Virus record (IMG/VR): IMGVR_UViG_3300025889_000860
Coordinates: 1 to 25,540 of that record
Source of the DNA: a virus
Reading direction: 5' to 3' (one strand)
DNA length: 25,540 nucleotides
Under the pieces are notes generated by a model. That model searched no databases. It worked only from the letters and a program-made list of their open reading frames with translations, and had not been told where the DNA came from. Of the stretch, positions 855 to 19,737 are shown piece after piece (within the stretch, counting starts at the first letter, position 1; each line of letters opens with the position of its first letter). Both the position numbers and the translations under genes were made by a program.

Positions 855-883
855 TTGGTATCGACAAAATATATATGTATATT
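855..883 (+). promoter_or_regulatory. Possible sigma70-type promoter
   Basis: TTGGTA (855-860) and TATATT (878-883) are separated by 17 bases. They match TTGACA at 4 of 6 positions and TATAAT at 5 of 6. Transcription would start near 890, only about 9 nt before the ATG at 899, and would serve the run of small genes 899-1746. The A+T-rich background makes false positives likely. Confidence 0.3.
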
Positions 884-898
884 TAAAGAAAACAAGTT

Positions 899-1189
899 AT
901 GAGACTAACACGAGAACAAAAGAAAGAAAAAGCCGTTGAAGATCTAATCAACCAGATGTTTATCATAGCAGGCCATGATGTTAGATTTGAAGACATTAAA
1001 ACGCGCCAAGATAATTGGTTTCAACAATATACAATGACCATGGCTCAAAATGATGAGTGGAAAGAATGGGGTAAACAATACCTCCAAAAGAACTTACGTA
1101 CTAAAGCCAAAGCAGCAGAAATGGAAATGCAATGGTTTAGTTTAAACTATGGATTAAAGTTTTCAGATTGGCCAGATAAATCAGAATAA
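899..1189 (+). CDS. Conserved T4-like phage small protein (96 aa)
   Basis: Hydrophilic, charged, predominantly helical protein starting MRLTREQKKEKAVEDLINQM. It has a tryptophan-rich middle and end (DNWFQQYT, DEWKEWGKQYL, NYGLKFSDWPDK). The pattern resembles small uncharacterised proteins of marine T4-like phages; I know no assigned function. The start follows AAGAAAACAAGTT, an A-rich leader without Shine-Dalgarno, with a promoter-like sequence just upstream. One base after its stop begins the next small gene, so 899-1746 looks like one transcription unit. Confidence 0.75.
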   Translation: MRLTREQKKEKAVEDLINQMFIIAGHDVRFEDIKTRQDNWFQQYTMTMAQNDEWKEWGKQYLQKNLRTKAKAAEMEMQWFSLNYGLKFSDWPDKSE

Positions 1190-1190
1190 G

Positions 1191-1310
1191 ATGGGAATAC
1201 TACAAGATAAAGTCAATAGTCTAAAAAAAGACCCTTGGTATAAGAAATTAAGAAGGTGGCTAAAGTTTAAATTATGGCTATGGAAACACAAACTCAATAA
1301 CCCAAAATGA
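1191..1310 (+). CDS. Small basic protein (39 aa)
   Basis: ATG 1191 to TGA 1308-1310. The product is strongly basic and tryptophan-rich, with a run KKLRRWLKFKLWLWKHKL that could form an amphipathic or membrane-surface helix. It sits one base after the preceding stop, and its own stop overlaps the next ATG as ATGA, which argues for translational coupling with the membrane protein downstream. No family recognised. A lysis accessory or membrane-active peptide is possible, but that is inference from composition alone. Confidence 0.55.
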   Translation: MGILQDKVNSLKKDPWYKKLRRWLKFKLWLWKHKLNNPK

Positions 1311-1555
1311 AATACCCAATTATATTTTTAAGTGCTTTAATAATTGAAATTTGTTCTACCTTTTACATAAATTATGTAGCAGATAAAAATCCTATTGGTA
1401 TGATAATATTTGCAGCTATAGGACCATTTTTAGGTTTACCCTTTGCCGGTTATATGGTTGAATCTAAATTATGGAGTGAACGTATCAAAATGGCATTTGC
1501 TTTATCCTTAGGTTATATAGTAGGGTGCTTAATAGTTTTAAAATTAATAAAATGA
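1307..1555 (+). CDS. Small integral membrane protein (82 aa, ~3 TM)
   Basis: Mostly hydrophobic, with segments at about residues 2-20, 30-50 and 62-80 separated by short polar loops. No cleavable signal peptide is evident. The start overlaps the previous stop (ATGA), and its stop overlaps the next start (ATGA at 1552). I do not recognise a family. Size and topology are compatible with a holin-like protein, but no lysis enzyme is adjacent, so this remains a hypothetical inner-membrane protein. Confidence 0.65.
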   Translation: MKYPIIFLSALIIEICSTFYINYVADKNPIGMIIFAAIGPFLGLPFAGYMVESKLWSERIKMAFALSLGYIVGCLIVLKLIK

Positions 1556-1746
1556 GTGAAAAAAATTCATCAAACGGATTTGGATTCGGAACAGTTCTAT
1601 TCTTAATCTTTTTAATCCTAAAATTAACTAATTATATTGATTGGAGTTGGTGGTGGGTCACTTCCCCACTATGGATCCCAGTTGCTATAATTATGTTTAT
1701 ATCAGGAATAGCCGTAATTTCTTACTACAACAAAACCAAGAAATAA
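1552..1746 (+). CDS. Transmembrane Fragile-X-F-like small protein (64 aa)
   Basis: Start chosen at ATG 1552, which overlaps the previous TGA; an upstream ATG at 1525 would add nine residues inside the preceding gene. The protein begins MSEKNSSNGFGFGTVLFLIF and continues with LKLTNYIDWSWWWVTSPLWI and a second hydrophobic helix. The pattern L-K-L-T-x-x-I-D-W-S-W-W-W-V-T-x-P-L-W-I is typical of the short phage and bacterial proteins labelled transmembrane Fragile-X-F (TMEM185-like). Two membrane segments flank the W-rich turn. Biochemical role unknown. Last gene of the 899-1746 overlapping set. Confidence 0.75.
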   Translation: MSEKNSSNGFGFGTVLFLIFLILKLTNYIDWSWWWVTSPLWIPVAIIMFISGIAVISYYNKTKK

Positions 1747-1786
1747 AAAAACTTGGTTCCCTTAAAAAAGGTTCGTTGGTTACTCA

Positions 1787-1795
1787 TATTTATAA
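1787..1795 (+). promoter_or_regulatory. TATTTATAA motif (candidate late promoter/leader)
   Basis: TATTTATAA followed by TCAAATAA, 20 nt before the ATG at 1816, in the 69-bp gap between genes. It is one of five intergenic copies in the window. It contains TATAATCA, close to the T4 late promoter core TATAAATA. Confidence 0.4.
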
Positions 1796-1815
1796 TCAAA
1801 TAAAAACTATAAATT

Positions 1816-2052
1816 ATGAGTGACATCAGACCAGAAATCGACAAATTAATTGAAGAACTTGAAACCCAGGGAATATCCCAAGATACAAGCCCTAATAATG
1901 TAGTAGGTTTAGGTGATTTAGTTGAATCTACTTTAACTAAAATGGGTATTACCCAAGAGCGTTATAAAGAATTTTTTGGACTTGAAGAATGTGGTTGTAC
2001 TAAACGTAAAAAATGGCTTAACGGTGTTTTAAGTTGGACTGTTAAAAAATAG
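1816..2052 (+). CDS. Phage small protein with C-terminal CGC-KRK-W motif (78 aa)
   Basis: Acidic N-terminal helix (residues 1-20), a linker, a middle segment V-G-L-G-D-L-V-E-S-T-L-T-K-M-G, and a C-terminus ECGCTKRKKWLN. Short phage proteins ending in CGC-x-x-R-K-x-x-L-N occur widely in marine myoviruses and have no known function. The paired cysteines could bind metal with a partner. It is preceded by the TATTTATAA motif and an A-rich leader. Confidence 0.7.
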   Translation: MSDIRPEIDKLIEELETQGISQDTSPNNVVGLGDLVESTLTKMGITQERYKEFFGLEECGCTKRKKWLNGVLSWTVKK

Positions 2053-2056
2053 TCCT

Positions 2057-2161
2057 ATGTTAAGAAACTTATTAGCTATCCCTTTTTATTTTATGTTAGG
2101 TTCATTAGCTATTATAGTTTGTGGTTTTATTTCTTTTTATGAAATTCTTACCCTTAAATAA
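2057..2161 (+). CDS. Single-TM micro-protein (34 aa)
   Basis: ATG 2057 to TAA 2159-2161. It encodes MLRNLLAIPFYFMLGSLAII followed by a second hydrophobic part and a short KL-type tail. One long membrane helix covers most of the protein. It starts four bases after the preceding stop, and its stop overlaps the next ATG (TAATG), matching the tight packing of neighbours. Function unknown. Confidence 0.5.
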   Translation: MLRNLLAIPFYFMLGSLAIIVCGFISFYEILTLK

Positions 2162-2508
2162 TGGCAGTATATACTTATGTTCAATTGTATGGTAGTGGGA
2201 CGTCAAGTCAAAACTTGACAGCCTCTACTACTTATCAATTTAAATTCTCAAACCCAAGTGGGTCTTCTTATTTCGTAATGGAAACTGCTCGTGACACAAA
2301 TGGTTTCTATACATCTGTTTCCCCTAACAATATTGATGGAGTTTTTATAGTTTCTTCCTCTATGAATTTTTCAACTTCATCTTACGTGGCAGGCTTTGAA
2401 GTTCCTGAAGGTGTCTCTGCTTTTAGGTTTACCCCAACTAATAATGTTACCGGAACTACTCTTTATTTAAGAGGAACTGGAATGTTTGATTTAACTATAA
2501 CTCCTTAA
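2161..2508 (+). CDS. Small beta-rich protein, probable virion or decoration component (115 aa)
   Basis: Composition is S/T/G/N-rich with alternating hydrophobic residues throughout, which predicts a small beta-sandwich. There are no cysteines, no signal peptide and no membrane segment. The C-terminal strand TTLYLRGTGMFDLTITP resembles edges of phage decoration or fibre modules. It sits among accessory small genes rather than in the main structural block, so a virion role is only inferred. It could also be a moron-type adhesion or decoration protein. It starts one base inside the previous stop. Confidence 0.55.
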   Translation: MAVYTYVQLYGSGTSSQNLTASTTYQFKFSNPSGSSYFVMETARDTNGFYTSVSPNNIDGVFIVSSSMNFSTSSYVAGFEVPEGVSAFRFTPTNNVTGTTLYLRGTGMFDLTITP

Positions 2509-2563
2509 ATTTTAATTTGGCCCTTAAACCTAGAGATAATATATTCAGGTTAAAATTAAGGTT

Positions 2564-2698
2564 ATGTTGAAAATTAAAGAAATCAAAATTTTACTGATAA
2601 TATCTTTATTTGTGGCGTTTGGCTTAACTGGACTAATAGGTTTTGCTTTTGCTGCTGGATGTGTTATTGGAGATTTAATTGTTGAGGAATTATTTTAA
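2564..2698 (+). CDS. Small membrane protein (44 aa)
   Basis: ATG 2564 to TAA 2696-2698. A basic N-terminus (MLKIKEIK) is followed by about 25 hydrophobic residues (ILLIISLFVAFGLTGLIGFA) and an acidic tail (DLIVEELF). This is a typical single-pass topology with N-in orientation by the positive-inside rule. No family recognised. The upstream gap 2509-2563 can form an imperfect stem (CCTTAA 2522-2527 with TTAAGG 2556-2561). Confidence 0.5.
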   Translation: MLKIKEIKILLIISLFVAFGLTGLIGFAFAAGCVIGDLIVEELF

Positions 2699-2707
2699 AT
2701 TAGTTAT

Positions 2708-2947
2708 ATGGAAAAGGAATATAAAAGATCAAAAAAAGTAACTACGGCGGATGGAACTGTAATGTTTACGTTTGACGGCAAATTACATAATTGGGAAGGG
2801 CCGGCGTTAATACCCCAAGGAAATACCAAGAAACGCGAGTATTATCTTAATGGGATTAAAATGAGTGAGTTAGAATGGAAGGCTGCTCTTAAAGGTAGAG
2901 AAGGTTTACCATGGTATAAGGGGTCGGGTGCTAAAGCTAGATTTTAA
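2708..2947 (+). CDS. MORN-like phage protein (79 aa)
   Basis: It contains T-F-D-G-K-L-H-N-W-E-G-P-A-L-I-P (about residues 21-37), followed by a second strand pair (REYYLNGIKMSELEW). The G-K-x-H-N-x-x-G-P-A core is the signature of MORN/YwqK-like beta-hairpin units, and the ending LPWYKGSGAKARF resembles small proteins of T4-like cyanophages. Function is unknown; such repeats usually mediate protein or membrane contacts. It starts nine bases after the previous stop, with ATTAGTTAT before the ATG. Confidence 0.7.
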   Translation: MEKEYKRSKKVTTADGTVMFTFDGKLHNWEGPALIPQGNTKKREYYLNGIKMSELEWKAALKGREGLPWYKGSGAKARF

Positions 2948-2956
2948 TATTTATAA
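2948..2956 (+). promoter_or_regulatory. TATTTATAA motif (candidate late promoter/leader)
   Basis: TATTTATAA followed by TAAATAA begins at the last base of the preceding stop codon, 35 nt before the ATG at 2992. A small hairpin, ACCCT (2963-2967) with AGGGT (2974-2978), lies between the motif and the gene. Confidence 0.4.
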
Positions 2957-2991
2957 TAAATAACCCTAATATAAGGGTATATAAGTATAGA

Positions 2992-3447
2992 ATGATGAAT
3001 TTGACAGGTGTGTTTGCATTATTTGGATTCCCTGAAGATAAAGATGATAAATGGGATAAACAACAGAAAGAATTAGAAGATTTTAAAGAATCTGCTTATT
3101 TCAAAATCGGCATGTTTAAAAAATTAATCAGAAATGGAACTTCATTTAAAAAACAAGTTGTAAAATTTCTTAGTAGCTCCGATGATAAACTTGATATTAA
3201 AGGAATAGATGAAGCTGGAGATTATATGATGTTTACTAGAGCTTATTTTTGGATTGAGGATTGTAAATTTAGAAGTAAAGAATGGAAAGAAGCTTTTTAT
3301 AATCATTCTGATGAAGAATTTATTAAGTTTATAAAATTATCAATTAATTATTTTGAGGTTTCTGAAGAATATGAGAAATGCGCTCATTTAAAGAAAGTAC
3401 AAAATCTTATAGAAAAGAACTTAAAAGTTCTTAATAAGGAAAAATAA
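2992..3447 (+). CDS. Hypothetical helical protein with UVR-like C-terminal motif (151 aa)
   Basis: Charged, helical protein. It begins MMNLTGVFALFGFPEDKDDK; ATG 2992 and ATG 2995 are both possible starts. The C-terminal part (about 120-145), E-V-S-E-E-Y-E-K-C-A-H-L-K-K-V-Q, resembles the UVR helix-turn-helix motif of UvrB/UvrC/McsA (E-E-Y-E-x-A-A-x-L-R), a protein-protein contact element. The central region is rich in aromatics with D/E. I know no defined function. It lies in the accessory block and is followed by a small hairpin and a long A+T-rich gap. Confidence 0.65.
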   Translation: MMNLTGVFALFGFPEDKDDKWDKQQKELEDFKESAYFKIGMFKKLIRNGTSFKKQVVKFLSSSDDKLDIKGIDEAGDYMMFTRAYFWIEDCKFRSKEWKEAFYNHSDEEFIKFIKLSINYFEVSEEYEKCAHLKKVQNLIEKNLKVLNKEK

Positions 3448-3461
3448 CTTGGCTTCCCAAG
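3448..3461 (+). terminator. Weak stem-loop after the 2992 gene
   Basis: CTTGG (3448-3452) pairs with CCAAG (3457-3461) around a CTTC loop, directly after the stop codon. The stem is only 5 bp, and the following bases are GAAAAATTTATT rather than a clean T tract, so termination is doubtful. Confidence 0.25.
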
Positions 3462-3468
3462 AAAAATT

Positions 3469-3570
3469 TATTATCTTCAATAATGTTATTATTTTATATA
3501 AAAAATTAAATATGAAAATTTAATAATAAAAAATATAATATAATAAAGATAAAAATAATAGAAGATAATA
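3469..3570. repeat. Inverted repeat bounding an almost pure A+T tract
   Basis: TATTATCTTC (3469-3478) and GAAGATAATA (3561-3570) are perfect 10-bp inverted arms. The 82 bases between them contain three G and no C by my count. No gene fits here. It may be a promoter/UP-like region, an easily melted site or a protein-binding tract upstream of the 3597 and 3782 genes. Confidence 0.5.
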
Positions 3571-3596
3571 TTAAATATTAAAAACCAAAAACCCTA

Positions 3597-3764
3597 ATGA
3601 GAAATAAAGAATTAGTTTTAAGACGACTAGAGTCTTTAGATGGAAAGATGAAAAGGATGAGAAATGCTCTAAATGAACGAAATATAGATGCTGCTCGTCA
3701 AATTTTGCAAGAATTACTTGAAGCAAGAGAAGATCTTCAAGCTATTATTGAACGAGAAAATTAA
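3597..3764 (+). CDS. Small coiled-coil protein (55 aa)
   Basis: ATG 3597 to TAA 3762-3764. Entirely charged and helical, MRNKELVLRRLESLDGKMKR onward, with heptad-like leucine spacing (LVLRRLESL, ILQELLEAREDLQAIIE). Similar short helical proteins occur in T4-like phages without assigned function. It probably dimerises or binds a partner through the coiled coil. It lies between the A+T-only tract and the HD-domain gene, 17 nt before the latter. Confidence 0.6.
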   Translation: MRNKELVLRRLESLDGKMKRMRNALNERNIDAARQILQELLEAREDLQAIIEREN

Positions 3765-3781
3765 TCCAAAATAAATAAGTT

Positions 3782-4576
3782 ATGAAATTAACCGCTGAAC
3801 AGATCCAAGATAATTGGAATGAATTAATGAAGTATATTGAGCAATATATTTCTGAACCCCGTAAAGAAAAACTTTTAGAATTTTATGATCAATATTCTGA
3901 ACGTTTAATGTTAATGCCCGCATCACATAAAAAAGAATATCATAATGCATTCCCAGGTGGTTATGTAGAGCATGTTTTGCGAGTTATTAGATGTTCTTTA
4001 AAACAATTACATTTATGGGCTAGTGAGGGAATGGATGACTCTACTTTCACTACTGAAGAATTAGTATTCTCAGCTTTAAATCATGATTTAGGTAAAATGG
4101 GTAATGAAGAAGAAGAATCATATATCCCTCAAACTGACCAATGGAGAAAAGATAAATTAGGAGAGGATTATATGTTTAATGAAAAAGTACCTTTCTCTTC
4201 AGTTCCTGACAGAACATTATATTTATTGCAGTCACACGGAATTTTTTATACTTTTAATGAAATGATAGCCATTCAAACCCATGATGGTTTATACGATGAG
4301 GGAAATAAAAAATATCTTATTTCATTTATTCCAGGACAAAAACCAAGAACTAGTTTACCTTATATTTTGCATCAAGCAGATTTAATGGCATCTCGTATTG
4401 AGTTTGAACGTGAATGGTTACCTAAGTTAAAAGAAGGTAAAAAATCCGTGGATAATAAAAAAGAAAATTTTACATTGGGGACAAAACCCAACACATCTAA
4501 AAAATTAACAACTAAAACTAAAGCTTTAGGTTCATTTAAAAGTGATGGTTTAAAAAACATGTTAGATAATTTATGA
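3782..4576 (+). CDS. HD-domain phosphohydrolase-like protein (264 aa)
   Basis: It shows the HD-superfamily metal-binding set: H64 in GGYVEHVLRV, H101-D102 in ALNHDLGKMG, H152 and H167 as further histidines, and D200 in HQADLMASRIE. HD proteins hydrolyse phosphate esters, including nucleotides, cyclic nucleotides and (p)ppGpp; the substrate cannot be told from sequence. The C-terminal 50 residues are lysine- and serine-rich and probably disordered. The ATG follows AAATAAGTT, and its stop overlaps the next ATG (ATGA). Candidate roles are nucleotide-pool control or removal of host signalling nucleotides. Confidence 0.8.
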   Translation: MKLTAEQIQDNWNELMKYIEQYISEPRKEKLLEFYDQYSERLMLMPASHKKEYHNAFPGGYVEHVLRVIRCSLKQLHLWASEGMDDSTFTTEELVFSALNHDLGKMGNEEEESYIPQTDQWRKDKLGEDYMFNEKVPFSSVPDRTLYLLQSHGIFYTFNEMIAIQTHDGLYDEGNKKYLISFIPGQKPRTSLPYILHQADLMASRIEFEREWLPKLKEGKKSVDNKKENFTLGTKPNTSKKLTTKTKALGSFKSDGLKNMLDNL

Positions 4577-4860
4577 TAGGCTTAATAATTACAATTTGTA
4601 TTTTAGCAGTATTAGTCGTGATTCTTGGATTCACGACTTTTAATCTTCTAAGAAAAAATGAGAAACAAGAAGATATAGTAGCAGGATATTTAATTTATCT
4701 TGATCGTATATCTCGTACAATCGAAATCTCAGACAAAAAATTAAAAGAACTTGATCGAGGTGGTGTATTTCAAGCGGATGATGAAGTTGGGGTTATATTT
4801 AAATCAATTCTCCAAATTCAAGATATCCTCAATGAATTCAACCTTAGAAAGTTCAATTAA
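4573..4860 (+). CDS. Single-TM phage protein with cytoplasmic helical domain (95 aa)
   Basis: Residues 2-26 form one hydrophobic helix (GLIITICILAVLVVILGFTT), followed by about 65 charged helical residues ending RGGVFQADDEVGVIFKSILQ and a final helix. The pattern resembles membrane-anchored small proteins that T4-like phages carry near gene 55; function unknown. The start overlaps the HD gene by four bases, and the stop is one base before the late sigma start, so the three are probably co-expressed. A perfect 8-bp hairpin lies inside it (4614-4638). Confidence 0.65.
   Translation: MIGLIITICILAVLVVILGFTTFNLLRKNEKQEDIVAGYLIYLDRISRTIEISDKKLKELDRGGVFQADDEVGVIFKSILQIQDILNEFNLRKFN
4614..4638 (+). 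other. 8-bp perfect stem-loop upstream of the late sigma gene
   Basis: AGTCGTGA (4614-4621) pairs with TCACGACT (4631-4638) around a 9-nt loop, within the transmembrane-helix codons of the 4573 gene. It has a higher G+C stem than its surroundings. It could be an mRNA processing or stability element for the downstream gp55-like gene, or chance. Confidence 0.45.
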
Positions 4861-4861
4861 A

Positions 4862-5566
4862 ATGTCTAAAAAACCTGCTAGTAAAAACTACTTTACTCAG
4901 GAGACTGAAAATGCTATAGTACTGTATAACAGTATTACTGACCCTGTTTTAAAAAGTAAAATATATGAAGATAAAATTCATTATGCTTTTTTTAAACTTA
5001 CTCAAAATATAATCCATACATTTAAGTTTTACCATACTGAAGTAGAGAATTTAGAACACTTACAACACGAGATAATCGTGTTTTTACTTTCTAAAATTCA
5101 TCTCTTTAATCCTCAAAATGGGGCTAAAGCTTATTCTTACTTTGGTACTATTGTAAAACGATGGTGTATATTATATAATGAAAAAAATTATAAAAGTAAA
5201 ACTAGTAAAACATCTGTAGATGAATTAGCAAAAGACGATTCATATTCATATACATTAGAATCATCTGAATTAGATGATAAATTATCTTTTTTTATGAATA
5301 GATATGTTGAGTTTGTTAGTGTTAATATTTATGTAATTTTTCCTAAAGGGAATGACGCTAAAATAGCAGATGCTATATTAGAATTATTTCGAAAAAGAGA
5401 TAATATAGATGTTTTTAATAAAAAAGCATTATACATCTATATCCATGAAATGATTCCTGATGCTAAAACTCCTAAAATCACTAAAATAGCTGGAGTGTTA
5501 TATAATGTATTTAAAAAGAATTATTTATTTTACCTAGAACAAGGTTATATAGATTTCCAACTCTAG
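4862..5566 (+). CDS. 55: Late-transcription sigma factor, gp55-like (234 aa)
   Basis: Start chosen at ATG 4862 (MSKKPASKNYFTQETENAIV), two bases after the previous stop; a longer frame from 4751 would run inside the upstream gene. The N-terminus Y-F-T-Q-E-T-E-x-A-I, the middle region (FLLSKIHLFNPQNGAKAYSY, then FGTIVKRW) and the segment FNKKALYIYIHEM match the sigma70 region-2-like layout of T4-family gp55. T4 gp55 is shorter (185 aa). T4 gp55 redirects host RNA polymerase to late promoters with a minimal TATAAATA core. Its position just before the structural module fits. An intragenic hairpin followed by T residues lies at 5064-5082. Confidence 0.75.
   Translation: MSKKPASKNYFTQETENAIVLYNSITDPVLKSKIYEDKIHYAFFKLTQNIIHTFKFYHTEVENLEHLQHEIIVFLLSKIHLFNPQNGAKAYSYFGTIVKRWCILYNEKNYKSKTSKTSVDELAKDDSYSYTLESSELDDKLSFFMNRYVEFVSVNIYVIFPKGNDAKIADAILELFRKRDNIDVFNKKALYIYIHEMIPDAKTPKITKIAGVLYNVFKKNYLFYLEQGYIDFQL
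5064..5082 (+). other. 7-bp stem-loop with following T run inside gp55-like gene
   Basis: AACACGA (5064-5070) pairs with TCGTGTT (5076-5082) around GATAA and is followed by TTTAC. It resembles a short intrinsic terminator on the coding strand, placed about 200 bases into the late sigma gene. The T run is short, so attenuation is only a possibility. Confidence 0.35.
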
Positions 5567-5576
5567 TTGATATCTA

Positions 5577-5585
5577 TATTTATAA
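5577..5585 (+). promoter_or_regulatory. TATTTATAA motif with exact TATAAATA (candidate late promoter)
   Basis: TATTTATAA at 5577-5585 overlaps an exact forward TATAAATA at 5581-5588, the T4 late promoter core. It lies directly after the gp55-like gene and 10 nt before the first gene of the structural run. If it acts as in T4, the transcript would begin at or very near the ATG at 5596. Confidence 0.5.
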
Positions 5586-5595
5586 ATAAAATAAT

Positions 5596-5934
5596 ATGAG
5601 TAATTTAGAATCAAACGTATTTGGTAAGAAAAAATTCTCTGATCTTCTTAAAGAAATTTATGATAATCAAAAGAAAAAAGAACAACAAATCACAGCTTTA
5701 ATAGGTGAATTAAAACCACTTATTAATGATATTGGTGATGCTACTTTAATTGTTCCCCTAATTAAAGAATACATGGAATTAGGTATTAAAAATGATGAAC
5801 AATTAATTAAAATGGCCACCATTATCCAACGAGCTTTAGCTTCGGGTAAATCAGAAGAAGAAGGATTTGGAATGACTGAAGAAGAAAAAGCTCAATTATT
5901 ATCTGAAGTTAAAAAATTTAACTCTAAAGACTAA
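5596..5934 (+). CDS. Hypothetical helical protein preceding the baseplate genes (112 aa)
   Basis: Charged helical protein: MSNLESNVFGKKKFSDLLKE, a helical core with D-A-T-L-I-V-P-L-I-K-E-Y-M, and an acidic tail GFGMTEEEKAQLLSEVKKFN. No family recognised. Its stop overlaps the start of the gp5-like hub gene (TAATG). Location suggests a tail or baseplate assembly role. T4 gp33, the late co-activator, has the same length, but I see no similarity in sequence, so I do not assign it. Confidence 0.6.
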   Translation: MSNLESNVFGKKKFSDLLKEIYDNQKKKEQQITALIGELKPLINDIGDATLIVPLIKEYMELGIKNDEQLIKMATIIQRALASGKSEEEGFGMTEEEKAQLLSEVKKFNSKD

Positions 5935-7175
5935 TGAGTAATCCATATGGGAAATTTGGCTTCCCAGCCATGACTAATAATGCTCTAGGTAATAAATCCT
6001 CAGATAAATCTAATAAATCTAGTACTGATTCTTTTATAGTTAGAGTAATTAGTATTAATCTTACTACTAATGAAGGATTTACCCAAGTAGGAGTTATTAA
6101 TGGGGAGCGTATTAGTAGTAAAGGAATACCAACTGGTAAAATTATTACTAATATATTTCCTGCTGATCCTTATAGAAAAATAATTCCTTTAGTTAATGAA
6201 TTTGTAAAAGTATCATATATTATAGCCCCTAACACAACTGGAGGGCAATTTGTTTATAGTTCTCCTCTTTCATTATATGGTATAGCCTCAATAAATGTTA
6301 ACCCATCACCTACCCCATTAAATAATAATACTCCAGATTCTCAAACTGTAGATTATGCCCAATCATTTAATGGCGCTGTTAATATAGTACCTAATACAGA
6401 TACTGAGTTAAATTATAATTCTCCAAATCAATTAGAAAATTCTACATTTATAGAACGTAGTAATATTCACCCATTATTACCTTTTGAAGGAGATGTTTTA
6501 TATGAAAGCAGATGGGGAAGCAGTATTCGGTTTGGTAGTACAGTTAAATCAAAAAACCCATGGTCAAAATCAGGAATAAATGGAGATCCTATTACTATTA
6601 TAAGGAACGGGCAAAATCCTAATTCTAATGATTTTGGAGCTGAGCCTATTATTGAAGATATAAAACAAGATTTAGCTTCAATTTATTTAACTTCTACTCA
6701 ACAATTAGAAAATTTTAGTTTAGCTAATGAAAATTTTATTTCATATACTACCCCACCAATAACTCCTGCTTTTTATTCTAACCCTCAAGTAAATATAAAT
6801 TCTAGTAGAGTAATATTAAACGCTAATTCTGACAGTGTTCTAATCAGTGGAGAAAAATCAGTTGGTTTATCTTCAAATAATAGTATTAATATAGAAGCTA
6901 AACAAATATATTTTGATGGTGTTGATATTAGATTAGGTAGAAAGAATGCTTCCCAAGCTGTTTTAAAAGGAAACGACACTGTAGAATATTTAAAAATGAT
7001 ATTAAATGAATTAAAAAATATAACTGAAGCTTTAAAAATAATTCAAGATTGGCCAGCTGGAGCCCCAGTCCCTAATTCAGTAATATTAACTGTAGCTAAT
7101 TCATCTCAAAAAGTATTTGAAGACATTTATAATAATATAGATAGTATTAAATCTAATTTTGTAAAAACAATTTAA
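5934..7175 (+). CDS. 5: Baseplate hub/spike protein, gp5-like without lysozyme (413 aa)
   Basis: The N-terminal part (about 35-125) is beta-rich and compatible with the gp5 OB fold. The middle carries FEGDVLYESRWGSSIRFGST (about 185-205), K-N-P-W-S, G-D-P-I-T-I-I-R-N-G-Q and D-L-A-S-I-Y-L-T-S-T, a signature of myoviral baseplate spike proteins. About 285-345 is a repeated beta series (INSSRVILNANSDSVLISGE, then SINIEAKQIYFDGVDIRLGR), as in the C-terminal beta-helix of gp5/gpV. No lysozyme domain is inserted; the next gene supplies a GH19 enzyme. It probably forms the trimeric membrane-puncturing tip under the tail tube. Confidence 0.75.
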   Translation: MSNPYGKFGFPAMTNNALGNKSSDKSNKSSTDSFIVRVISINLTTNEGFTQVGVINGERISSKGIPTGKIITNIFPADPYRKIIPLVNEFVKVSYIIAPNTTGGQFVYSSPLSLYGIASINVNPSPTPLNNNTPDSQTVDYAQSFNGAVNIVPNTDTELNYNSPNQLENSTFIERSNIHPLLPFEGDVLYESRWGSSIRFGSTVKSKNPWSKSGINGDPITIIRNGQNPNSNDFGAEPIIEDIKQDLASIYLTSTQQLENFSLANENFISYTTPPITPAFYSNPQVNINSSRVILNANSDSVLISGEKSVGLSSNNSINIEAKQIYFDGVDIRLGRKNASQAVLKGNDTVEYLKMILNELKNITEALKIIQDWPAGAPVPNSVILTVANSSQKVFEDIYNNIDSIKSNFVKTI

Positions 7176-7176
7176 T

Positions 7177-8355
7177 ATGCAAACTATTGGAAAATTTGAT
7201 ATAGAAGAAGCAATAAGACTATATAAAGAAAGTTTTATTGGGAAATCACACCCTGTTTCTTCAATATTTGAAGATAGTTTACGTTTAGTTTTAAATAAAG
7301 CTCAAAATGATAAAAATATAACTAATGTAATAAGATTAGCTTATCTATTAGGAACAGCCGCTATAGAGAGTGGTTATTCTTTACAAAGATGGGAAGCTGA
7401 TTTTGTATGTGGGCCTAAAGGAATACCATACGGCCCAAAAGGGCCATGTCAAAGTGCTCTTAACTATTACCGTAGCACAAAAGGTGGTAAATTAAATTAT
7501 TATACTCTTGGTTTAGATTCTAGAGGATTTCCTTATTTTGGTCGTGGTCTTATTCAATTAACGGGTAAAGAAAACTATGAAAAATACGGAACAGGTGTAA
7601 AAAATGGTAAACCAATTAAAGATTACACTAATTTTATTGGTGTAAATCTTGCGGATAATCCTGAATTAGCTTTAACAAATGATAATAGTTATGCTATTGC
7701 TATTGCTTATATGATAGAGAGAAAAACTTTTCAATTTGCTGAACAAAATAATTTTGCTGCGGCTAGAAAGAGTGTTAAAGGTAATAGTGAAGGATTTGAA
7801 GCTGTTAGAGATGTATCTCTTGCTTGGAAAAAAATTATAGAAGATCTTATTAAAAAATACCGAGAAACACCTAATTGGTATGGTGAAGAATTAAGACCTA
7901 TAACAGCATCTGTTACTATAATCAACAGTGAAACTAATGAATTTATTAAAAAACCAAAAATTGAACCTCTTCTTACTATTAATGAAATAACTCCAATCAC
8001 GTCTAAAGACCCTAGAAAAGAAAATTTATATACTGATGGAGAAATAGAGTTAGCATATTCTTTAAATCCTCCAACTGTTGGGAATTACCAAATACCTTAT
8101 ACTGGGTATTATCATATAAATAACCCTAAAGATCCTGGAGTACCATACACTGGAAGAACCTGGTATTCTATACAATCTGATACTACTACAACTTCTACTG
8201 GAAATATAATTACAAATCTTTCTCAACTCCCTATAACTGAATCAGAAAAATTATATCTTATAGATGAATCATTTTTACCAAGTGGTGCTAAATTATTACA
8301 AAAACAATTACTTAAAGAAATGGAAAGAGGATACCCTTCAATGAAAAATTTTTAA
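7177..8355 (+). CDS. Tail-associated GH19-type lysozyme/chitinase-like protein (392 aa)
   Basis: Residues 45-230 match the glycoside hydrolase 19 fold. AYLLGTAAIESGY carries the likely catalytic E64, with E73 in QRWEADF as the second acid, and YFGRGLIQLTGKENYEKYG (120-138) is the conserved substrate-cleft motif. Phage GH19 enzymes cleave peptidoglycan glycan strands. The C-terminal 150 residues are T/P/N-rich without an obvious domain and may attach to the baseplate. It starts one base after the gp5-like gene, and I infer it does the infection-time wall-cutting that a gp5-embedded lysozyme does in T4. An endolysin role at cell exit is the alternative; no signal peptide or holin partner is adjacent. 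Confidence 0.8.
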   Translation: MQTIGKFDIEEAIRLYKESFIGKSHPVSSIFEDSLRLVLNKAQNDKNITNVIRLAYLLGTAAIESGYSLQRWEADFVCGPKGIPYGPKGPCQSALNYYRSTKGGKLNYYTLGLDSRGFPYFGRGLIQLTGKENYEKYGTGVKNGKPIKDYTNFIGVNLADNPELALTNDNSYAIAIAYMIERKTFQFAEQNNFAAARKSVKGNSEGFEAVRDVSLAWKKIIEDLIKKYRETPNWYGEELRPITASVTIINSETNEFIKKPKIEPLLTINEITPITSKDPRKENLYTDGEIELAYSLNPPTVGNYQIPYTGYYHINNPKDPGVPYTGRTWYSIQSDTTTTSTGNIITNLSQLPITESEKLYLIDESFLPSGAKLLQKQLLKEMERGYPSMKNF

Positions 8356-8358
8356 ATT

Positions 8359-9438
8359 ATGAACCCTAATCAAACTTTATTTCCATTATCTTCTTCAGCT
8401 ATTCCACCAAATCCTAAAGATTTACCTAAAATATTAATATCATCAGATGGTTTTGAATCTCAAGAAATAGTAACTATTAAAGGAGATGGGTCATTAAAAG
8501 AAGATTTAGGAGTAATTTCTTTAGTACCAACAAATATTGCTTTAGAAAAAGATAAAATTAAAGCATCCCAATTAAACACAGATCAAATTAAAGAACTTTC
8601 TAAAGGAAATAAAGGAGCTGATTATTTTATTCAAGAACGTTTATCTAACCAAATAATAACTATTAAATCTACTTTAATTCCCTCTATATTGACCATGATA
8701 GCATCTTTTGGGATAACTAATGCTTCTGATTTACTAACCCAAAAACCAGATAAAGTTAAAGATGTTATATCTAATAGATCTAAACTCCCTGATACGATAC
8801 TTATAGAAACTTTAATAAATAAAAAAAATAAATTAGTTAAACAATTAAATAATACTTTTAAAATAATAGATAATACTACTAAAGCTTTAGGCATATCAGG
8901 AGGTATTATAGAGGGATTAAGTATAACATATATTACTTTAAAAAATATTCCTATCCCTACTTCAACAGGAGTACCTGGTGTCCCTGGATTACCAGTGAAT
9001 ACTATATTAAATATTCAAGATAATAAAGATAATCTTGATCAACTTATAAATAAATCAGAAAAAAATAATACTAATATATCCTCTAATTTAACATTACTAA
9101 AACAAGTTCTTATTCCTGCTCTTCAATTATTAAATTTACTTGATAAATTAATTGAAAATCATTATCCTGGTATTGATCAAGAACAAATATCTTTACAGCT
9201 CACAGATTTAACTATTAAACAATCTCAACAATTATCTCCTATAGTAACTAATATTAATGGATTTGAAATGAAAGTTGAAACTGAAGAAACTAATAAACCT
9301 TTAAAACGTAGAAGAGCAGTTGCTATTAATAAAAAAGGAGTTAGAGTATTAGAAGGAGATTGGTCTTTTAGTTCAATTGATCAAATATTAATTGATGAAC
9401 TTGTATTTTATATTCAACAGAATAATTTAAAAGCTTAA
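8359..9438 (+). CDS. Putative baseplate/virion structural protein (359 aa)
   Basis: Long helical middle (about 75-275) with repeated N/K/L/I-rich helices, a proline-glycine turn (PIPTSTGVPGVPGLPVN) and a compact C-terminal domain. That domain contains N-G-F-E-M-K-V-E-T, L-K-R-R-R-A-V-A and G-V-R-V-L-E-G-D-W-S-F (about 305-345). Such an ending is seen in uncharacterised virion proteins of marine myoviruses. It lies between the GH19 lysozyme and gp25, within the baseplate set and four bases from the previous stop, so a hub or wedge component is the likely role. It is far too short to be a tape measure. Confidence 0.6.
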   Translation: MNPNQTLFPLSSSAIPPNPKDLPKILISSDGFESQEIVTIKGDGSLKEDLGVISLVPTNIALEKDKIKASQLNTDQIKELSKGNKGADYFIQERLSNQIITIKSTLIPSILTMIASFGITNASDLLTQKPDKVKDVISNRSKLPDTILIETLINKKNKLVKQLNNTFKIIDNTTKALGISGGIIEGLSITYITLKNIPIPTSTGVPGVPGLPVNTILNIQDNKDNLDQLINKSEKNNTNISSNLTLLKQVLIPALQLLNLLDKLIENHYPGIDQEQISLQLTDLTIKQSQQLSPIVTNINGFEMKVETEETNKPLKRRRAVAINKKGVRVLEGDWSFSSIDQILIDELVFYIQQNNLKA

Positions 9439-9447
9439 TTAACCCTA

Positions 9448-9456
9448 TATTTATAA
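9448..9456 (+). promoter_or_regulatory. TATTTATAA motif (leader element)
   Basis: TATTTATAA followed by TC, only four bases before the ATG at 9461. At this distance it cannot be a conventional -10 element for that gene. Either the motif acts at mRNA level or this copy serves downstream genes. Confidence 0.35.
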
Positions 9457-9460
9457 TCAT

Positions 9461-9793
9461 ATGAAAACAGATATATTAAAAAAATTAATTAAAGAGGCTG
9501 TACGAGAAGCAATTCAAGAAGAATTAAAAGATATTCTTTTAGAATCTATTCGTTCACCAAAAACAATCGTAAAGGAATCTATCCAAACAATAGATACTCC
9601 TAAACCCACATTTACTCAACCTACAATGGATGCAAGAAAAGCTTATATGGATGTAATGAACGAAACATCTTTAAGTTTTACTTCACGTGACGCTCAAACT
9701 TTTAATCCTAAAAGTGTAGATCCAATTAATGGGAATTTAGGAAATGGTGAAGTAGGAATGGATCAAATTATGTCTTTAATGAATAATAAATAA
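9461..9793 (+). CDS. Hypothetical virion assembly protein (110 aa)
   Basis: The N-terminal 30 residues form a charged amphipathic helix (MKTDILKKLIKEAVREAIQE). A proline- and threonine-rich linker follows, then a conserved-looking tail segment P-T-M-D-A-R-K-A-Y-M-D-V-M-N-E-T. No enzyme motif. It directly precedes gp25 with a TAATG overlap, so expression with the baseplate wedge is expected. The terminal helix could be a docking or scaffold element. Family not recognised. Confidence 0.6.
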   Translation: MKTDILKKLIKEAVREAIQEELKDILLESIRSPKTIVKESIQTIDTPKPTFTQPTMDARKAYMDVMNETSLSFTSRDAQTFNPKSVDPINGNLGNGEVGMDQIMSLMNNK

Positions 9794-10197
9794 TGGCTTT
9801 TAGCCCTCAACAAATAGCACCTATTGATTTTGATGCAAGTATTGCAGTAGGGGTAAATCTTCCTTTAAATGGACCTGCTGTTTTTACATCAAATTATCAA
9901 ACTAAAGATGCTATAAAAAACAATTTAATTAATTTTTTCCTTACTAACCCAGGTGAAAGACCTTTAAATCCTCTATTTGGAGGGGGCTTACGAGCTTTTG
10001 TATTTGAACAAATTACATTAGATAATTTAACTACTTTAAGAGAAGACGTTAATGAAAAACTTCAAATATATTTTCCTAATATTATAGTTGAAAGTCTTGT
10101 TGTAACTGGAGATAATGATAATAATCAAGTAAATGTAACTCTTAAATATAGTGTTTTAAATACAAATATTAATGATACCCTAGAAATTGAATTCTAA
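9793..10197 (+). CDS. 25: Baseplate wedge protein gp25-like (134 aa)
   Basis: A near family-length match to T4 gp25 (132 aa) and phage P2 gpW. It carries the diagnostic segment N-P-G-E-R-P-L-N-P-L-F-G-G-G-L (about 54-68), preceded by the helix AIKNNLINFFLT and followed by beta strands ending DTLEIEF. The gp25/gpW family (Pfam GPW_gp25) forms the part of the wedge that contacts the tail sheath and primes its polymerisation. It lies two bases before the gp6-like gene, the usual gp25-gp6 pairing in contractile-tail systems. Confidence 0.9.
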   Translation: MAFSPQQIAPIDFDASIAVGVNLPLNGPAVFTSNYQTKDAIKNNLINFFLTNPGERPLNPLFGGGLRAFVFEQITLDNLTTLREDVNEKLQIYFPNIIVESLVVTGDNDNNQVNVTLKYSVLNTNINDTLEIEF

Positions 10198-10199
10198 AA

Positions 10200-12044
10200 A
10201 TGGCTACAACAAATAGAGATATAAAATATATTAATCGTGATTTTTCTGATTTCAGACAACGATTAATTGAATTTAGTAAAACTTACTTCCCACAAACATA
10301 TAATGATTTTTCTGAAGCATCCCCAGGAATGATGTTTATGGAACAAGTGTCATATGTAGGTGATGTTTTAAGTTTTTATTTAGATAATCAATTTCAAGAA
10401 ACTTTTATTCAATATGCTCAACAAACAAATAATATATTTGAATTAGCATATATGTTTGGTTATAAACCAAAAATAACAGGAGCAGCCCAAGTAACTTTAG
10501 ATTTTTATCAACAATTACCAGCTAAACAAATTGGAGCTGATTATTTTCCTGATTATGATTATGCTATAACCATTAATGAAAATACTACAGCTACATCAGT
10601 GAATGGGATTTCTTTTTTAATTCAAGATAAAATTGATTTTTCTATATCAAGTTCTCAAGATCCAACTGAAATAACTATTTTTCAAGTATCAAATAATATC
10701 CCTCAATATTATCTTTTAAAGAAAAGTAGAAATGCTATTTCATCCACAATAAACACTATTAATTTTAATTTTAATGATCCTATTCCTTATAATACTGTTA
10801 CTTTAAGTACTAATAATTTTATTAAAATATTAGATGTTATAGATTCTGATGGTAATATATGGTATGAAGTAGATCATTTAGGACAAGAAATGGTATTAAA
10901 TCCTATTAAAAATACTAATATAAATGATCCTAATAAAACAGATAATACTCCTTATTTATTAAGACTTAAAAAAGTAGCTAGACGATTTACTACTAGAATT
11001 ACATCTCCAACAACAATTGCTTTACAATTTGGAGCTGGATCTCCATCTGATATAACTGAAGAAATAACTCCTAATGCTGATAATGTTGGTTTAGGTTTAC
11101 CTTTTAAACAAGATAAATTAACAGCGGCTTATTCTCCTGTTAATTTTTTATACACAAACACATATGGTATAGCACCTTCAAATACTACTTTAACAGTAAG
11201 ATATTTAACTGGTGGTGGAGTTTCATCAAATGTAAGTGCTAATACTTTAACAATATTAAACACTGGTAATACTAAATTTAATAATATTAATTTAAACCCT
11301 ACTATTGCTAATTATATTTTTAACTCATTAGCTGTTAATAATGATGAAGCTGCTAGTGGAGGTAGTGCTGGTGATACTGTTGAACAAATCCGCCAAAATT
11401 CTCTAGCATTAATAGCATCCCAACAACGTTCAGTAACCGCTGATGATTATTTAGTTAGAGCTTTAAGTATGCCCTCAAATTATGGTTCTGTTACTAAAGC
11501 TTATATTGAACAACCTAAATTAACTGATAATCAAGTTTCTACAGTTGAAACTTTAAATTTATATGTTTTATCACAAAACACATTAGGACAACTAGATAAT
11601 GCTACTGAAACTTTAAAAAATAATTTAAGAACTTATATTTCTCAATATAGAGTAATTGGAGATAATATTGAAATTAGAGATGCTTTTATAATAAACATAG
11701 CTATTGAGTTTGAAATTATAGTTTTACCTGAGTATAATAATAATGAAGTATTATTAAATTGTATAACAGCATTAAAAAATTATTTTAATATTTCTAACTG
11801 GCAAATTAATCAACCTATTTTATTAAGAGATCTTTATATTTTATTAGACAAAATTAAAGGAGTTCAAACCGTTAAAAATATTTATATTACTAACAAAGCA
11901 GGAACTACTTCAGGTTACTCACAATATGCTTATGATATAACAGGAGCTACACAAAATCAAATAATTTACCCTTCATTAGATCCTAGTATTTTTGAAGTAA
12001 AATATCCTAATAATGATATTAAAGGTAAAGTAGTTCCTTTATAA
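10200..12044 (+). CDS. 6: Baseplate wedge protein gp6-like (614 aa)
   Basis: It begins MATTNRDIKYINRDFSDFRQ and continues F-S-E-A-S-P-G-M-M-F-M-E-Q-V-S-Y-V-G-D-V-L-S-F-Y-L-D (about 41-66), the characteristic N-terminus of T4-like gp6. The baseplate_J-like core follows, with E-Q-I-R-Q-N-S-L-A-L-I-A-S-Q-Q-R-S-V-T-A-D-D-Y (about 395-418). Length is close to T4 gp6 (660 aa). gp6 dimers form the iris of the baseplate wedge and connect hub to periphery. It lies directly after gp25 and is followed by a short gap with the TATTTATAA motif. Confidence 0.9.
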   Translation: MATTNRDIKYINRDFSDFRQRLIEFSKTYFPQTYNDFSEASPGMMFMEQVSYVGDVLSFYLDNQFQETFIQYAQQTNNIFELAYMFGYKPKITGAAQVTLDFYQQLPAKQIGADYFPDYDYAITINENTTATSVNGISFLIQDKIDFSISSSQDPTEITIFQVSNNIPQYYLLKKSRNAISSTINTINFNFNDPIPYNTVTLSTNNFIKILDVIDSDGNIWYEVDHLGQEMVLNPIKNTNINDPNKTDNTPYLLRLKKVARRFTTRITSPTTIALQFGAGSPSDITEEITPNADNVGLGLPFKQDKLTAAYSPVNFLYTNTYGIAPSNTTLTVRYLTGGGVSSNVSANTLTILNTGNTKFNNINLNPTIANYIFNSLAVNNDEAASGGSAGDTVEQIRQNSLALIASQQRSVTADDYLVRALSMPSNYGSVTKAYIEQPKLTDNQVSTVETLNLYVLSQNTLGQLDNATETLKNNLRTYISQYRVIGDNIEIRDAFIINIAIEFEIIVLPEYNNNEVLLNCITALKNYFNISNWQINQPILLRDLYILLDKIKGVQTVKNIYITNKAGTTSGYSQYAYDITGATQNQIIYPSLDPSIFEVKYPNNDIKGKVVPL

Positions 12045-12049
12045 CATTA

Positions 12050-12058
12050 TATTTATAA
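12050..12058 (+). promoter_or_regulatory. TATTTATAA motif (candidate late promoter/leader)
   Basis: TATTTATAA followed by TAAAATA, 14 nt before the ATG at 12073, in the 28-bp gap after gp6. The forward octamer TATAATAA is two changes from the T4 late core. Confidence 0.4.
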
Positions 12059-12072
12059 TAAAATATATTTAA

Positions 12073-13272
12073 ATGGCTGTATATAAAATCTTCCCTACAC
12101 AGGATACTACTTTATATTGTTCAAACCCAACAGCAAATACTGGGCTAGATGCTATTTTAGAAGTATCTAATAAAATAGGAATAGCTAATACCCCAGAAGT
12201 AGCCAGATATTTAATTCAATTTGATCAAGAAGAAATTTTAGATATCTATTCTAATAAAATTGGAACTAATTCTTATGAAGTTTATTTTAAAAATTTTATA
12301 GCAGAAGCTCAAGGATTAAATCAAAATACTTTTTTAGAATTACTTCCTGTAGCTCAAGAATGGAATAATGGAACAGGATATTATTTAGATAATCCTATTG
12401 AACAAGATGGTGCTTCTTGGACATATGCTAATTTTAGTGGCTCTTCTCCTTGGAGTATTTCAGGTTCATATTCTAGTGTTAATGGAGATGCTTTTTACAC
12501 TAGTTCTTATAGTAACATATGTGGTGGAGTTGGTGGAGGTAACTGGTTTACCGACGCATCAGGAAGTTATTATGTAGTAGTAGGATATGTTCTTCCAGGA
12601 TATGTAGCTACAGCGTATAGTAGCGGTTCAGTAAATATTTCTTTTGGTTTAAGAAGTCCTAAAGATATTGAAGCTAAAGTAACTAATATAGTAGATGCTT
12701 GGGTAGGAGAATCAATTCCAAATTATGGTTTTATAATTAAACTTACTGGATCTCAAGAATTTAATCCTAGTCAATTTATACAACCTATATTTAAATATTA
12801 TAGTGTTGATACAAATACTATTTATCCTCCAACTTTAGAATTTAGATGGAGAGATTATTCTACAGTATTAACAGGAAATAATACTGGTAGTATAGTTACT
12901 ACTTCTAATCTTAAAATGTCCCTTTCTGAAAACCCAGGGGTATTTTATCCTGAAAGTGTAAATAGATTTTATGTTAATGTAAGTCCTTTATATCCAACAC
13001 GTGTATATCAAACATCATCTTTATACACTAATTTAAATTATTTACCAACTGCTTCATATTACGCCATAAAAGACTTGGACACTAACGAATATGTTATTAA
13101 TTTCGATGACAATTACACTCAAATCAGTGCTGATTCAACCGGTAATTATTTTGATGTGTATATGAGTGGTTTAGAACCTGAAAGATATTATAAAATTTTA
13201 ATTAAAACAAATATTAATGGTTCTACTAAAATTTTTGATGATCATTACTATTTTAAAGTAGTTAACGGATGA
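12073..13272 (+). CDS. Baseplate/tail beta-sandwich protein, DNRLRE-like (399 aa)
   Basis: It opens MAVYKIFPTQDTTLYCSNPT, then N-T-G-L-D-A-I-L-E-V and E-V-A-R-Y-L-I-Q-F-D. This resembles the start of DNRLRE/carbohydrate-binding beta-sandwich modules (P-x-x-D-T-x-[IL]-x...N-x-G-x-x..RxLIKFD). A G/S/Y-rich insertion follows (about 105-195). The C-terminal third looks fibronectin-like (YAIKDLDTNEYVINFDDNYT, then a YFDVYMSGLEPERYYKI hairpin). I infer a surface-exposed baseplate or fibre-attachment protein. It sits where T4 has gp7-gp10. Its stop overlaps the next start (ATGA). Confidence 0.6.
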   Translation: MAVYKIFPTQDTTLYCSNPTANTGLDAILEVSNKIGIANTPEVARYLIQFDQEEILDIYSNKIGTNSYEVYFKNFIAEAQGLNQNTFLELLPVAQEWNNGTGYYLDNPIEQDGASWTYANFSGSSPWSISGSYSSVNGDAFYTSSYSNICGGVGGGNWFTDASGSYYVVVGYVLPGYVATAYSSGSVNISFGLRSPKDIEAKVTNIVDAWVGESIPNYGFIIKLTGSQEFNPSQFIQPIFKYYSVDTNTIYPPTLEFRWRDYSTVLTGNNTGSIVTTSNLKMSLSENPGVFYPESVNRFYVNVSPLYPTRVYQTSSLYTNLNYLPTASYYAIKDLDTNEYVINFDDNYTQISADSTGNYFDVYMSGLEPERYYKILIKTNINGSTKIFDDHYYFKVVNG

Positions 13273-19696: not shown

Positions 19697-19737
19697 TAAT
19701 ATTTATTAATATAATACATCTATAATAGAAATAAAAC

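What the first reader, a model, noticed from the sequence alone, without database searches (positions are those of the whole stretch)
1787..12058. TATTTATAA recurs in the intergenic gaps of a phage that encodes its own gp55-like late sigma factor
Seen: exact TATTTATAA at 1787, 2948, 5577, 9448 and 12050, each in a gap just before a + strand gene, plus a near copy at 19700. Gaps are a small part of the window, yet I found only about three copies inside genes (13762, 22364, 22675). Known: T4 gp55 recognises TATAAATA. At 5581 the forward octamer is exact; the others read TATAATAA or TATAATCA. Inference: a late promoter variant or an mRNA leader element. The ATG spacing varies (35, 20, 14, 10 and 4 nt), and the 4-nt case does not suit a -10 box.
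Basis: partly seen in the sequence, partly recalled or inferred. Interest (0 to 1): 0.55.

Follow-up and report, generated by a model that had tools for sequence, protein, structure and literature searches.

The report
Phage late-gene promoter with leaderless starts
The repeated TATTTATAA is very probably the "on" switch for the late (virion) genes of a large family of aquatic phages, probably read by a sigma factor that the phage encodes itself, and at some genes it sits so close to the start codon that the message would begin almost at the start codon.

Summary
TATTTATAA lies at 1787, 2948, 5577, 9448 and 12050, all on the + strand in gaps before + genes; the gaps hold 5 copies against 0.26 expected (0 of 300 shuffles). 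The conserved unit is TATTTAT, usually preceded by A or C. It is present before the gene that follows the sigma-like gene in 116 of 116 unique relatives, and before the gene upstream of gp25 in 100 of 100. Neighbouring genes inside operons lack it almost completely. In six related records it is strand-specific and precedes virion genes: 36 of 106 structural genes against 1 of 128 replication or metabolism genes. It has no -35 partner, which is the architecture of a T4 late promoter. The sequence differs, though: it is the reverse complement of T4's TATAAATA. Spacing to ATG is bimodal, 4-6 nt or about 14 nt, so the 4-nt case fits a leaderless start. In a relative with Shine-Dalgarno sites the element sits about 33 nt upstream, arguing against a translation signal. 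The adjacent protein has a sigma region-2-like predicted fold. A T4-type clamp was not found. No RNA data exist here.

The parts
1786..1793 (+). late promoter core ATATTTAT before gene 1816-2052 (22 nt between core and ATG)
   Evidence: ATATTTA in 12 of 14 unique ortholog upstreams
2947..2954 (+). late promoter core ATATTTAT before gene 2992-3447 (37 nt)
   Evidence: weakly conserved, ATATTTA in 19 of 55 unique ortholog upstreams
5576..5583 (+). late promoter core ATATTTAT directly after the sigma-like gene, before gene 5596-5934 (12 nt)
   Evidence: core in 116 of 116 unique upstreams; after the sigma stop in 92 of 92 loci tested
9447..9454 (+). late promoter core ATATTTAT before gene 9461-9793 (6 nt; predicted leaderless or a 1-2 nt leader)
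   Evidence: core in 100 of 100 unique upstreams, 4-7 nt from ATG
12049..12056 (+). late promoter core ATATTTAT before gene 12073-13272 (16 nt)
   Evidence: TATTTATAA in 69 of 72 unique upstreams of the window clade; 1 of 43 in the immuto clade has the core
19699..19706 (+). late promoter core ATATTTAT (followed by TA) before gene 19738-20397 (31 nt)
   Evidence: ATATTTA in 23 of 23; core in 21 of 21 of the stricter set
4862..5566 (+). sigma-factor-like protein, 234 aa; candidate reader of the element
5596..5934 (+). first gene behind the sigma-like gene; predicted first target of the late promoter
9793..10197 (+). baseplate wedge protein, gp25-like; inside an operon, no TATTTATAA of its own (0 of 85)
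10200..12044 (+). baseplate wedge protein, gp6-like; inside an operon, no TATTTATAA (0 of 80)

Best explanation
The element is the -10-type box of the late promoters of a large family of T4-related aquatic phages (relatives: Flavobacterium phage immuto and Microcystis phage Mel-JY01). Shown: the conserved core is TATTTAT, nearly always preceded by A or C, followed by an A-rich stretch, with no upstream box; it occurs in one orientation, in gaps before virion genes, and directly behind the sigma-like gene. Inferred: the phage sigma-like protein (4862-5566) binds host core RNA polymerase and reads this element through its region-2-like domain. Transcription would start about 5-6 nt after TATTTAT, on an A that is invariant at that place in front of the gene that follows the sigma gene. 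Where the ATG lies 4-6 nt downstream, the mRNA would be leaderless or carry 1-2 nt; elsewhere it has a short A-rich leader, as suits a host without Shine-Dalgarno sites. The sigma gene has no late element of its own, and its first target promoter lies just behind its stop codon, so late transcription would begin only once the sigma protein has been made from an earlier transcript.
For: Gap enrichment and strand bias. TATTTATAA in gaps, forward/reverse: window 5/1, G002 18/1, G001 22/6, G004 17/4, G006 18/4, immuto 16/5; 0 of 300 shuffles reach the forward count in each of these six. Core in 116 of 116, 100 of 100 and 21 of 21 unique upstreams of three genes, with flanks far less conserved. In the window clade TATTTATAA is in 0 of 58, 70, 71, 41, 85, 80, 63 and 62 upstreams of g3782, g4573, sigma, g5934, gp25, gp6, g13269 and g13631. 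In the immuto clade the core is in 70 of 70 and 52 of 52 upstreams of the two target genes, and in 0 of 52, 0 of 69, 0 of 52 and 0 of 51 of imm151, sigma, gp25 and gp6, and 1 of 58 of the HD gene. Structural against replication/metabolism genes: 36 of 106 against 1 of 128 over six records (orthologs are shared, so the pooled numbers are not independent; immuto alone 9 of 22 against 1 of 40, p = 0.0002). No -35 box in 115 aligned sites. In front of g5596, the sixth base after TATTTAT is A in 116 of 116; with the core at -13 to -6, the T4 placement in PMC1524935 (passage), this is +1. Spacing is bimodal, with 1 of 120 sites below 4 nt. In Mel-JY01, which has SD-like sites before 69 of 178 genes against 0 to 9% elsewhere, the element stays before orthologous late genes but at median 33 nt (n = 18) instead of medians of 9 to 22. 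Element within 60 nt after the sigma stop in 92 of 92 loci. Sigma fold: region 2 of RpoS (5h6x_B, Z 8.6, 3.4 A, 95 residues) and sigma-E region 2 bound to its -10 strand (4lup_A, Z 7.8, 2.8 A, 90 residues); BFVD hits at rank 2, 3 and many below are named phage sigma factors.
Against: There are no transcript data. The link between the sigma-like protein and the element is position and co-occurrence only. Sequence evidence for the sigma is weak: hhalign with T4 gp55 probability 1.2%, PDB Foldseek E-values 0.3 or worse, and Z below 13 for a helical protein may mean only a common arrangement (note). A distant relative with the same sigma family (LR756508) shows no TATTTAT bias, 7 against 7 in the 41.9 kb read. 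One replication-class gene, nrdB of immuto, carries the core, and sites also precede unknown genes and groES. The site at 2948 is poorly conserved, and the site before g12073 is missing in the immuto clade.
Confidence: 0.78

Rival explanations
1. Late promoter read by the host's own (Bacteroidota) primary sigma factor, with late timing set by another activator or by replication; the phage sigma-like protein does something else.
For: ATATTT lines up with the TTT of the Flavobacterium -7 element TAHHTTTG (PMC6847099, passages read). Some immuto sites merge with the second motif, CGTATATTTATAA.
Against: The nearly invariant G of the host element is replaced by A: of ATATTT in gaps, AT follows in 116, AA in 42 and AG in 9 (five freshwater-clade records). 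The exact host element TAHHTTTG is rare in forward gaps: window 0, G002 2, G001 1, G004 6, G006 0, immuto 0. The immuto clade often uses CTATTTAT, which lacks the -11 A. The element persists in Mel-JY01, whose recorded host is a cyanobacterium.
Confidence: 0.12
2. An mRNA leader or ribosome-recruiting element just upstream of start codons.
For: It always lies in the leader region; spacing before g9461 is nearly fixed.
Against: Spacing elsewhere runs from 4 to 40 nt and is bimodal. It is absent before most operon-internal genes. It moves to about 33 nt upstream in a relative that uses Shine-Dalgarno sites. It is nearly confined to late genes among named genes.
Confidence: 0.05
3. An endonucleolytic mRNA processing site (the RNA UAUUUAU is A/U-rich, as RNase E/G sites are) that makes 5' ends of late mRNAs.
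For: A/U-rich core next to start codons; RNase E preference recalled, not from a call.
Against: It sits at operon heads of late genes and right after the sigma gene. A separate two-part promoter-like motif (TTTCGTATATT with AGGA about 25 nt upstream) holds the equivalent place before small early-type genes. An invariant A six bases downstream suits a transcription start.
Confidence: 0.04
4. Chance or composition: AT-rich gaps.
For: GC 0.28; whole-window both-strand excess is modest (1 of 100 shuffles reach it).
Against: 0 of 300 within-gap dinucleotide shuffles reach the count in any of six records; strand bias; conservation in more than 100 relatives.
Confidence: 0.01

Closest known systems
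Bacteriophage T4 late promoters (gp55/gp33/gp45 system), including the divergent Aeh1 version CTAAATA (PMC1524935, passages read)
   Same: One short AT-rich box, no -35 box, before late virion genes, in a T4-related myovirus that encodes a sigma-like protein; spacing fits the same -13 to -6 placement.
   Different: Sequence is TATTTAT, the reverse complement of the T4 core rather than the core itself; no PF02916 clamp found and DNA polymerase is family A (immuto annotation); many sites predict leaderless or nearly leaderless mRNAs.
Bacteroidota primary-sigma promoters, TTTG / TAHHTTTG (PMC6847099, passages read)
   Same: A TTT-containing box close to the start; 4-5 nt from -7 element to transcription start in F. 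johnsoniae.
   Different: A in place of the nearly invariant G; no -33 signal; found before 1 of 128 named replication/metabolism genes only.
Early/late promoter pairs of AR9-type giant phages (PMC5312081, passages read)
   Same: Phage-specific late motif, distinct from an early motif.
   Different: AR9 uses its own multisubunit RNA polymerases, late motif AACA-N6-TA/G, leaders of 26-491 nt.

Membership tests
T4-type late promoter system | single -10-type box without a -35 box | tested here: met
   115 aligned gap sites show no conserved column upstream of the core
T4-type late promoter system | consensus TATAAATA (or N/CTAAATA) on the coding strand | tested here: not met
   TATAAATA in 4 of 67, 0 of 76, 0 of 72 ortholog upstreams; ATATTTA in 67, 76, 71
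T4-type late promoter system | located before late/structural genes | tested here: met
   36 of 106 structural, 1 of 128 replication/metabolism genes
T4-type late promoter system | phage sigma homologous to gp55 | tested here: inconclusive
   PHROG late sigma factor weakly in 7 of 44; hhalign with T4 gp55 nothing; region-2-like fold
T4-type late promoter system | gp45-type sliding clamp (PF02916) as co-activator | tested here: not met
   0 of 6 related records, of which immuto and Mel-JY01 are titled complete genomes and four may be fragments; T4 positive at 2.9e-35. Clamps of other families not tested
T4-type late promoter system | gp33 co-activator | not tested
   no search made
T4-type late promoter system | transcription starts 5-7 nt after the box | not testable with these tools
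   needs RNA; the A at the predicted start is invariant in 116 of 116 before g5596
Sigma-70 family protein (4862-5566) | region 2 fold (residues about 13-115) | tested here: met
   Z 6.9-8.6, 2.2-3.4 A over 74-95 residues to isolated sigma region 2 chains, modest for a helical protein; phage sigma factors among the top BFVD hits
Sigma-70 family protein (4862-5566) | curated Pfam sigma-70 domain hit | tested here: not met
   only a sub-threshold unrelated hit for the window protein
Bacteroidota primary-sigma promoter | TAHHTTTG with G at -5 | tested here: not met
   core continues with A; TAHHTTTG rare in forward gaps

The most novel reading that the evidence does not exclude
A previously undescribed late transcription system, spread over hundreds of aquatic phages. 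A sigma factor too diverged for routine annotation reads TATTTAT, the flip of the T4 late box, and its gene is followed at once by its first target promoter. The distance from promoter to start codon has been retuned to host translation: leaderless or about 8-nt leaders where the host lacks Shine-Dalgarno sites, about 30-nt leaders with Shine-Dalgarno sites in Mel-JY01. It would run without a T4-type sliding clamp.
Probability: 0.5. Interest if true: 0.65.

Novelty: new variant of a known kind. Interest (0 to 1): 0.55.

Why it matters
It gives a concrete promoter rule and a candidate sigma factor for a very common group of freshwater and marine phages whose transcription appears unstudied (no paper found in the listings). 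Because relatives occur with and without Shine-Dalgarno sites, promoter-to-start spacing becomes a natural experiment on how phages adapt mRNA leaders to the host ribosome. The predicted leaderless late mRNAs can be tested in a cultured phage and host (immuto and Flavobacterium sp. LMO8).

Tried and rejected
Nucleotide search for the window in the phage collection: no match. Forward TATAAATA as the conserved unit: rejected. A shared -35 box: none. The 'read backwards' control that the genome search offers for ATATTTATAA is not a clean control, because AATATTTATA contains most of the motif. Mel-JY01 first looked like a counterexample (0 TATTTATAA); the reason is that TTATAA is almost absent from that genome (2 against 253 expected from a first-order Markov model), while ATATTTAT is enriched in its gaps (19 against a mean of 4.4). 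LR756508, a more distant relative, does not show the element in the 41.9 kb read. RM378 was fetched in part but its promoters were not analysed. A search for relatives of the Mel-JY01 sigma in IMG/VR confirmed none. The second motif (TTTCGTATATT) has no good match in the window (best score 3.3 against a median of 32 for its own sites). Nearest upstream motif of the sigma gene within 4 kb: second motif in 37 of 92 loci, late element in 13, neither in 42, so how the sigma gene is switched on is not settled. A literature search for the literal string ATATTTATA returned only unrelated papers among the 20 of 34 listed.

Rows dropped before counts: G003 (its match positions are offset copies of those of G001) was left out of logos, enrichment and spacing. 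L001-L008 (pieces of the window) were left out. Blast hits on the minus strand, hits starting after residue 25, 12 or 10, and hits with too little upstream sequence were dropped. 62 of 154 loci were dropped for short upstream sequence. Identical upstreams were counted once. In some searches only sites in gaps and within 60 nt of a called ORF were counted. ORFs were called with a simple longest-ATG rule, so some starts may be wrong.
Full report
WHAT IS THERE. The window is a complete IMG/VR record of 25,540 bases at about 28% GC. Nearly all its genes lie on the + strand. It carries an HD-type phosphohydrolase, baseplate wedge proteins like gp25 and gp6, an endolysin-like protein, a protein matching 'NAD synthetase'/homing endonuclease families, a primase and an exonuclease. 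It belongs to a large group of T4-related aquatic phages. A scan with the gp6-like protein found 451 stretches encoding relatives, of which the best 80 were kept. The closest isolates, at about 45% protein identity for the gp6-like protein, are Flavobacterium phage immuto and Microcystis phage Mel-JY01.

IS IT MORE THAN CHANCE? Over the whole window and both strands the excess is modest (11 against 4.81). In the gaps on the coding strand it is strong: 5 against 0.26, with 0 of 300 shuffles reaching it. In G002, G001, G004, G006 and immuto the gap counts are 18, 22, 17, 18 and 16 against means of 0.6 to 1.4, again 0 of 300 each. ATATTTAT in gaps is 23/0, 24/1, 22/2, 18/0 and 19/1 forward/reverse in the same five. 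Unsupervised counting of 8- and 9-mers in the gaps put this element and one other motif on top.

THE CONSERVED UNIT. Upstream regions of orthologs (for the window clade, for the immuto clade, for both) show TATTTAT as the invariant part, preceded by A (freshwater clade) or A/C (immuto clade). It is in 116 of 116 unique upstreams of the gene behind the sigma-like gene, 100 of 100 upstreams of the gene before gp25, and 21 of 21 upstreams of gene 19738, while flanking columns vary. Operon-internal neighbours have none or almost none. Not every window site is old: 2948 is kept in a minority of relatives, and the one before 12073 is missing in the immuto clade.

WHERE IT STANDS. In immuto and G002 the sites precede tail sheath, tail completion, tail spike and other late-type genes, in G002 also the tape measure gene, and in immuto also portal, terminase and baseplate hub (tape measure of immuto). 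By name, 36 of 106 structural genes over six records have it within 60 nt, against 1 of 128 replication or metabolism genes (orthologs shared between records, so not independent; immuto alone 9 of 22 against 1 of 40, Fisher p = 0.0002; G004, G006 and Mel-JY01 alone are not significant). A different motif, TTTCGTATATT with a conserved AGGA about 25 nt upstream, stands before runs of small genes typical of early regions in G002. The two motifs largely divide the genome; three immuto sites fuse them.

ANATOMY AND MECHANISM. Aligned late sites show the core, an A-rich stretch behind it, and nothing upstream (115 sites). That is the layout of T4 late promoters, for which PMC1524935 gives the octamer at -13 to -6 (passage). 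Placing ATATTTAT at -13 to -6 puts +1 on the sixth base after TATTTAT, which is A in 116 of 116 upstreams of the gene behind the sigma gene. Distances from the core to ATG are bimodal: 24 of 120 at 4-6 nt, 8 at 7-10 nt, a peak of 20 at 14 nt, and only 1 below 4 nt. A floor at 4 nt with a cluster at 4-6 nt is what leaderless or nearly leaderless mRNAs would give. Before the gene upstream of gp25 the distance is 6 nt in 63 and 4 nt in 35 of 100 unique upstreams. In F. johnsoniae most predicted leaders (87%) exceed 10 nt (PMC6847099, passage), so this would be a special feature of the phage.

PROMOTER, NOT TRANSLATION SIGNAL. Mel-JY01 is a natural control. It has SD-like tetramers before 69 of 178 genes, against 0 of 21 in the window and 3 to 9% in the others. 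Its element stays before orthologs of the same late genes (portal, imm197, scaffold, tail completion, baseplate hub, imm163), but the median distance to ATG is 33 nt (18 sites) against medians of 9 to 22 nt elsewhere (Mann-Whitney p = 0.0004). A promoter would keep its place before late genes while the leader lengthens to hold a ribosome site; a translation element would not be expected to move in this way.

THE CANDIDATE READER. The protein at 4862-5566 is conserved across the group (44 members aligned) but is annotated 'hypothetical protein' in immuto and Mel-JY01. Sequence evidence is weak: PHROG late sigma factor in 7 of 44 members at E 0.021 or worse, nothing against T4 gp55, and a partial match to a hypothetical protein of Rhodothermus phage RM378 (probability 84%). 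The AlphaFold model (mean pLDDT 77, pTM 0.43) places residues 13-115 on sigma region 2 of RpoS and of sigma-E, and its BFVD neighbours include many phage sigma factors. All 92 loci with enough sequence have the core within 60 nt of its stop codon. Upstream of the sigma gene itself, TATTTATAA is in 0 of 71 (window clade) and the core in 0 of 69 (immuto clade). I infer that it is the late sigma factor. No T4-type clamp (PF02916) was found in six related records, with T4 as positive control; clamps of other families and gp33 were not tested.

COMPARISON AND NOVELTY. It works like a T4 late promoter but fails two defining features tested here (consensus TATAAATA; PF02916 clamp), so I do not file it as a member of that system. 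It differs from the host consensus TAHHTTTG by A in place of G. Searches for Flavobacterium or Bacteroidetes phage late promoters, Immutovirus, immuto and Mel-JY01 returned no paper describing it (listings only, in an open-licence library). I rate it a new variant of a known kind.

Noticed in passing
Mel-JY01 (PP395634), whole genome: TTATAA is almost absent: 2 copies against 253 expected by a first-order Markov model, suggesting avoidance of a restriction site.
   Followed up: partly
G002 positions 795-9425 and 163039-172227; also G001, G004, G006, immuto: A second, two-part motif (AGGA, about 25 nt, then TTTCGTATATT) stands before runs of small early-type genes; 80 unique gap copies in the window-clade records, reverse complements of its 8- and 9-mers 0 or 1. 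Probably the early or middle promoter class.
   Followed up: partly
immuto 90613, 128524, 130520: The two motifs are fused as CGTATATTTAT, as if one box served both promoter classes.
   Followed up: no
immuto gaps: A repeated gap element TATATTTAGGTATCAATAATTA, 10 to 18 copies of its k-mers, probably the immuto version of the second motif (CGTATATTTAGGTAT).
   Followed up: no
L307 (LR756508, 484 kb phage): Carries relatives of the sigma-like, gp25, gp6 and other proteins but no TATTTAT strand bias: its late promoter, if any, must differ.
   Followed up: partly
window 13631-19696: A 2,021-residue protein with no PHROG match sits in the baseplate operon.
   Followed up: no
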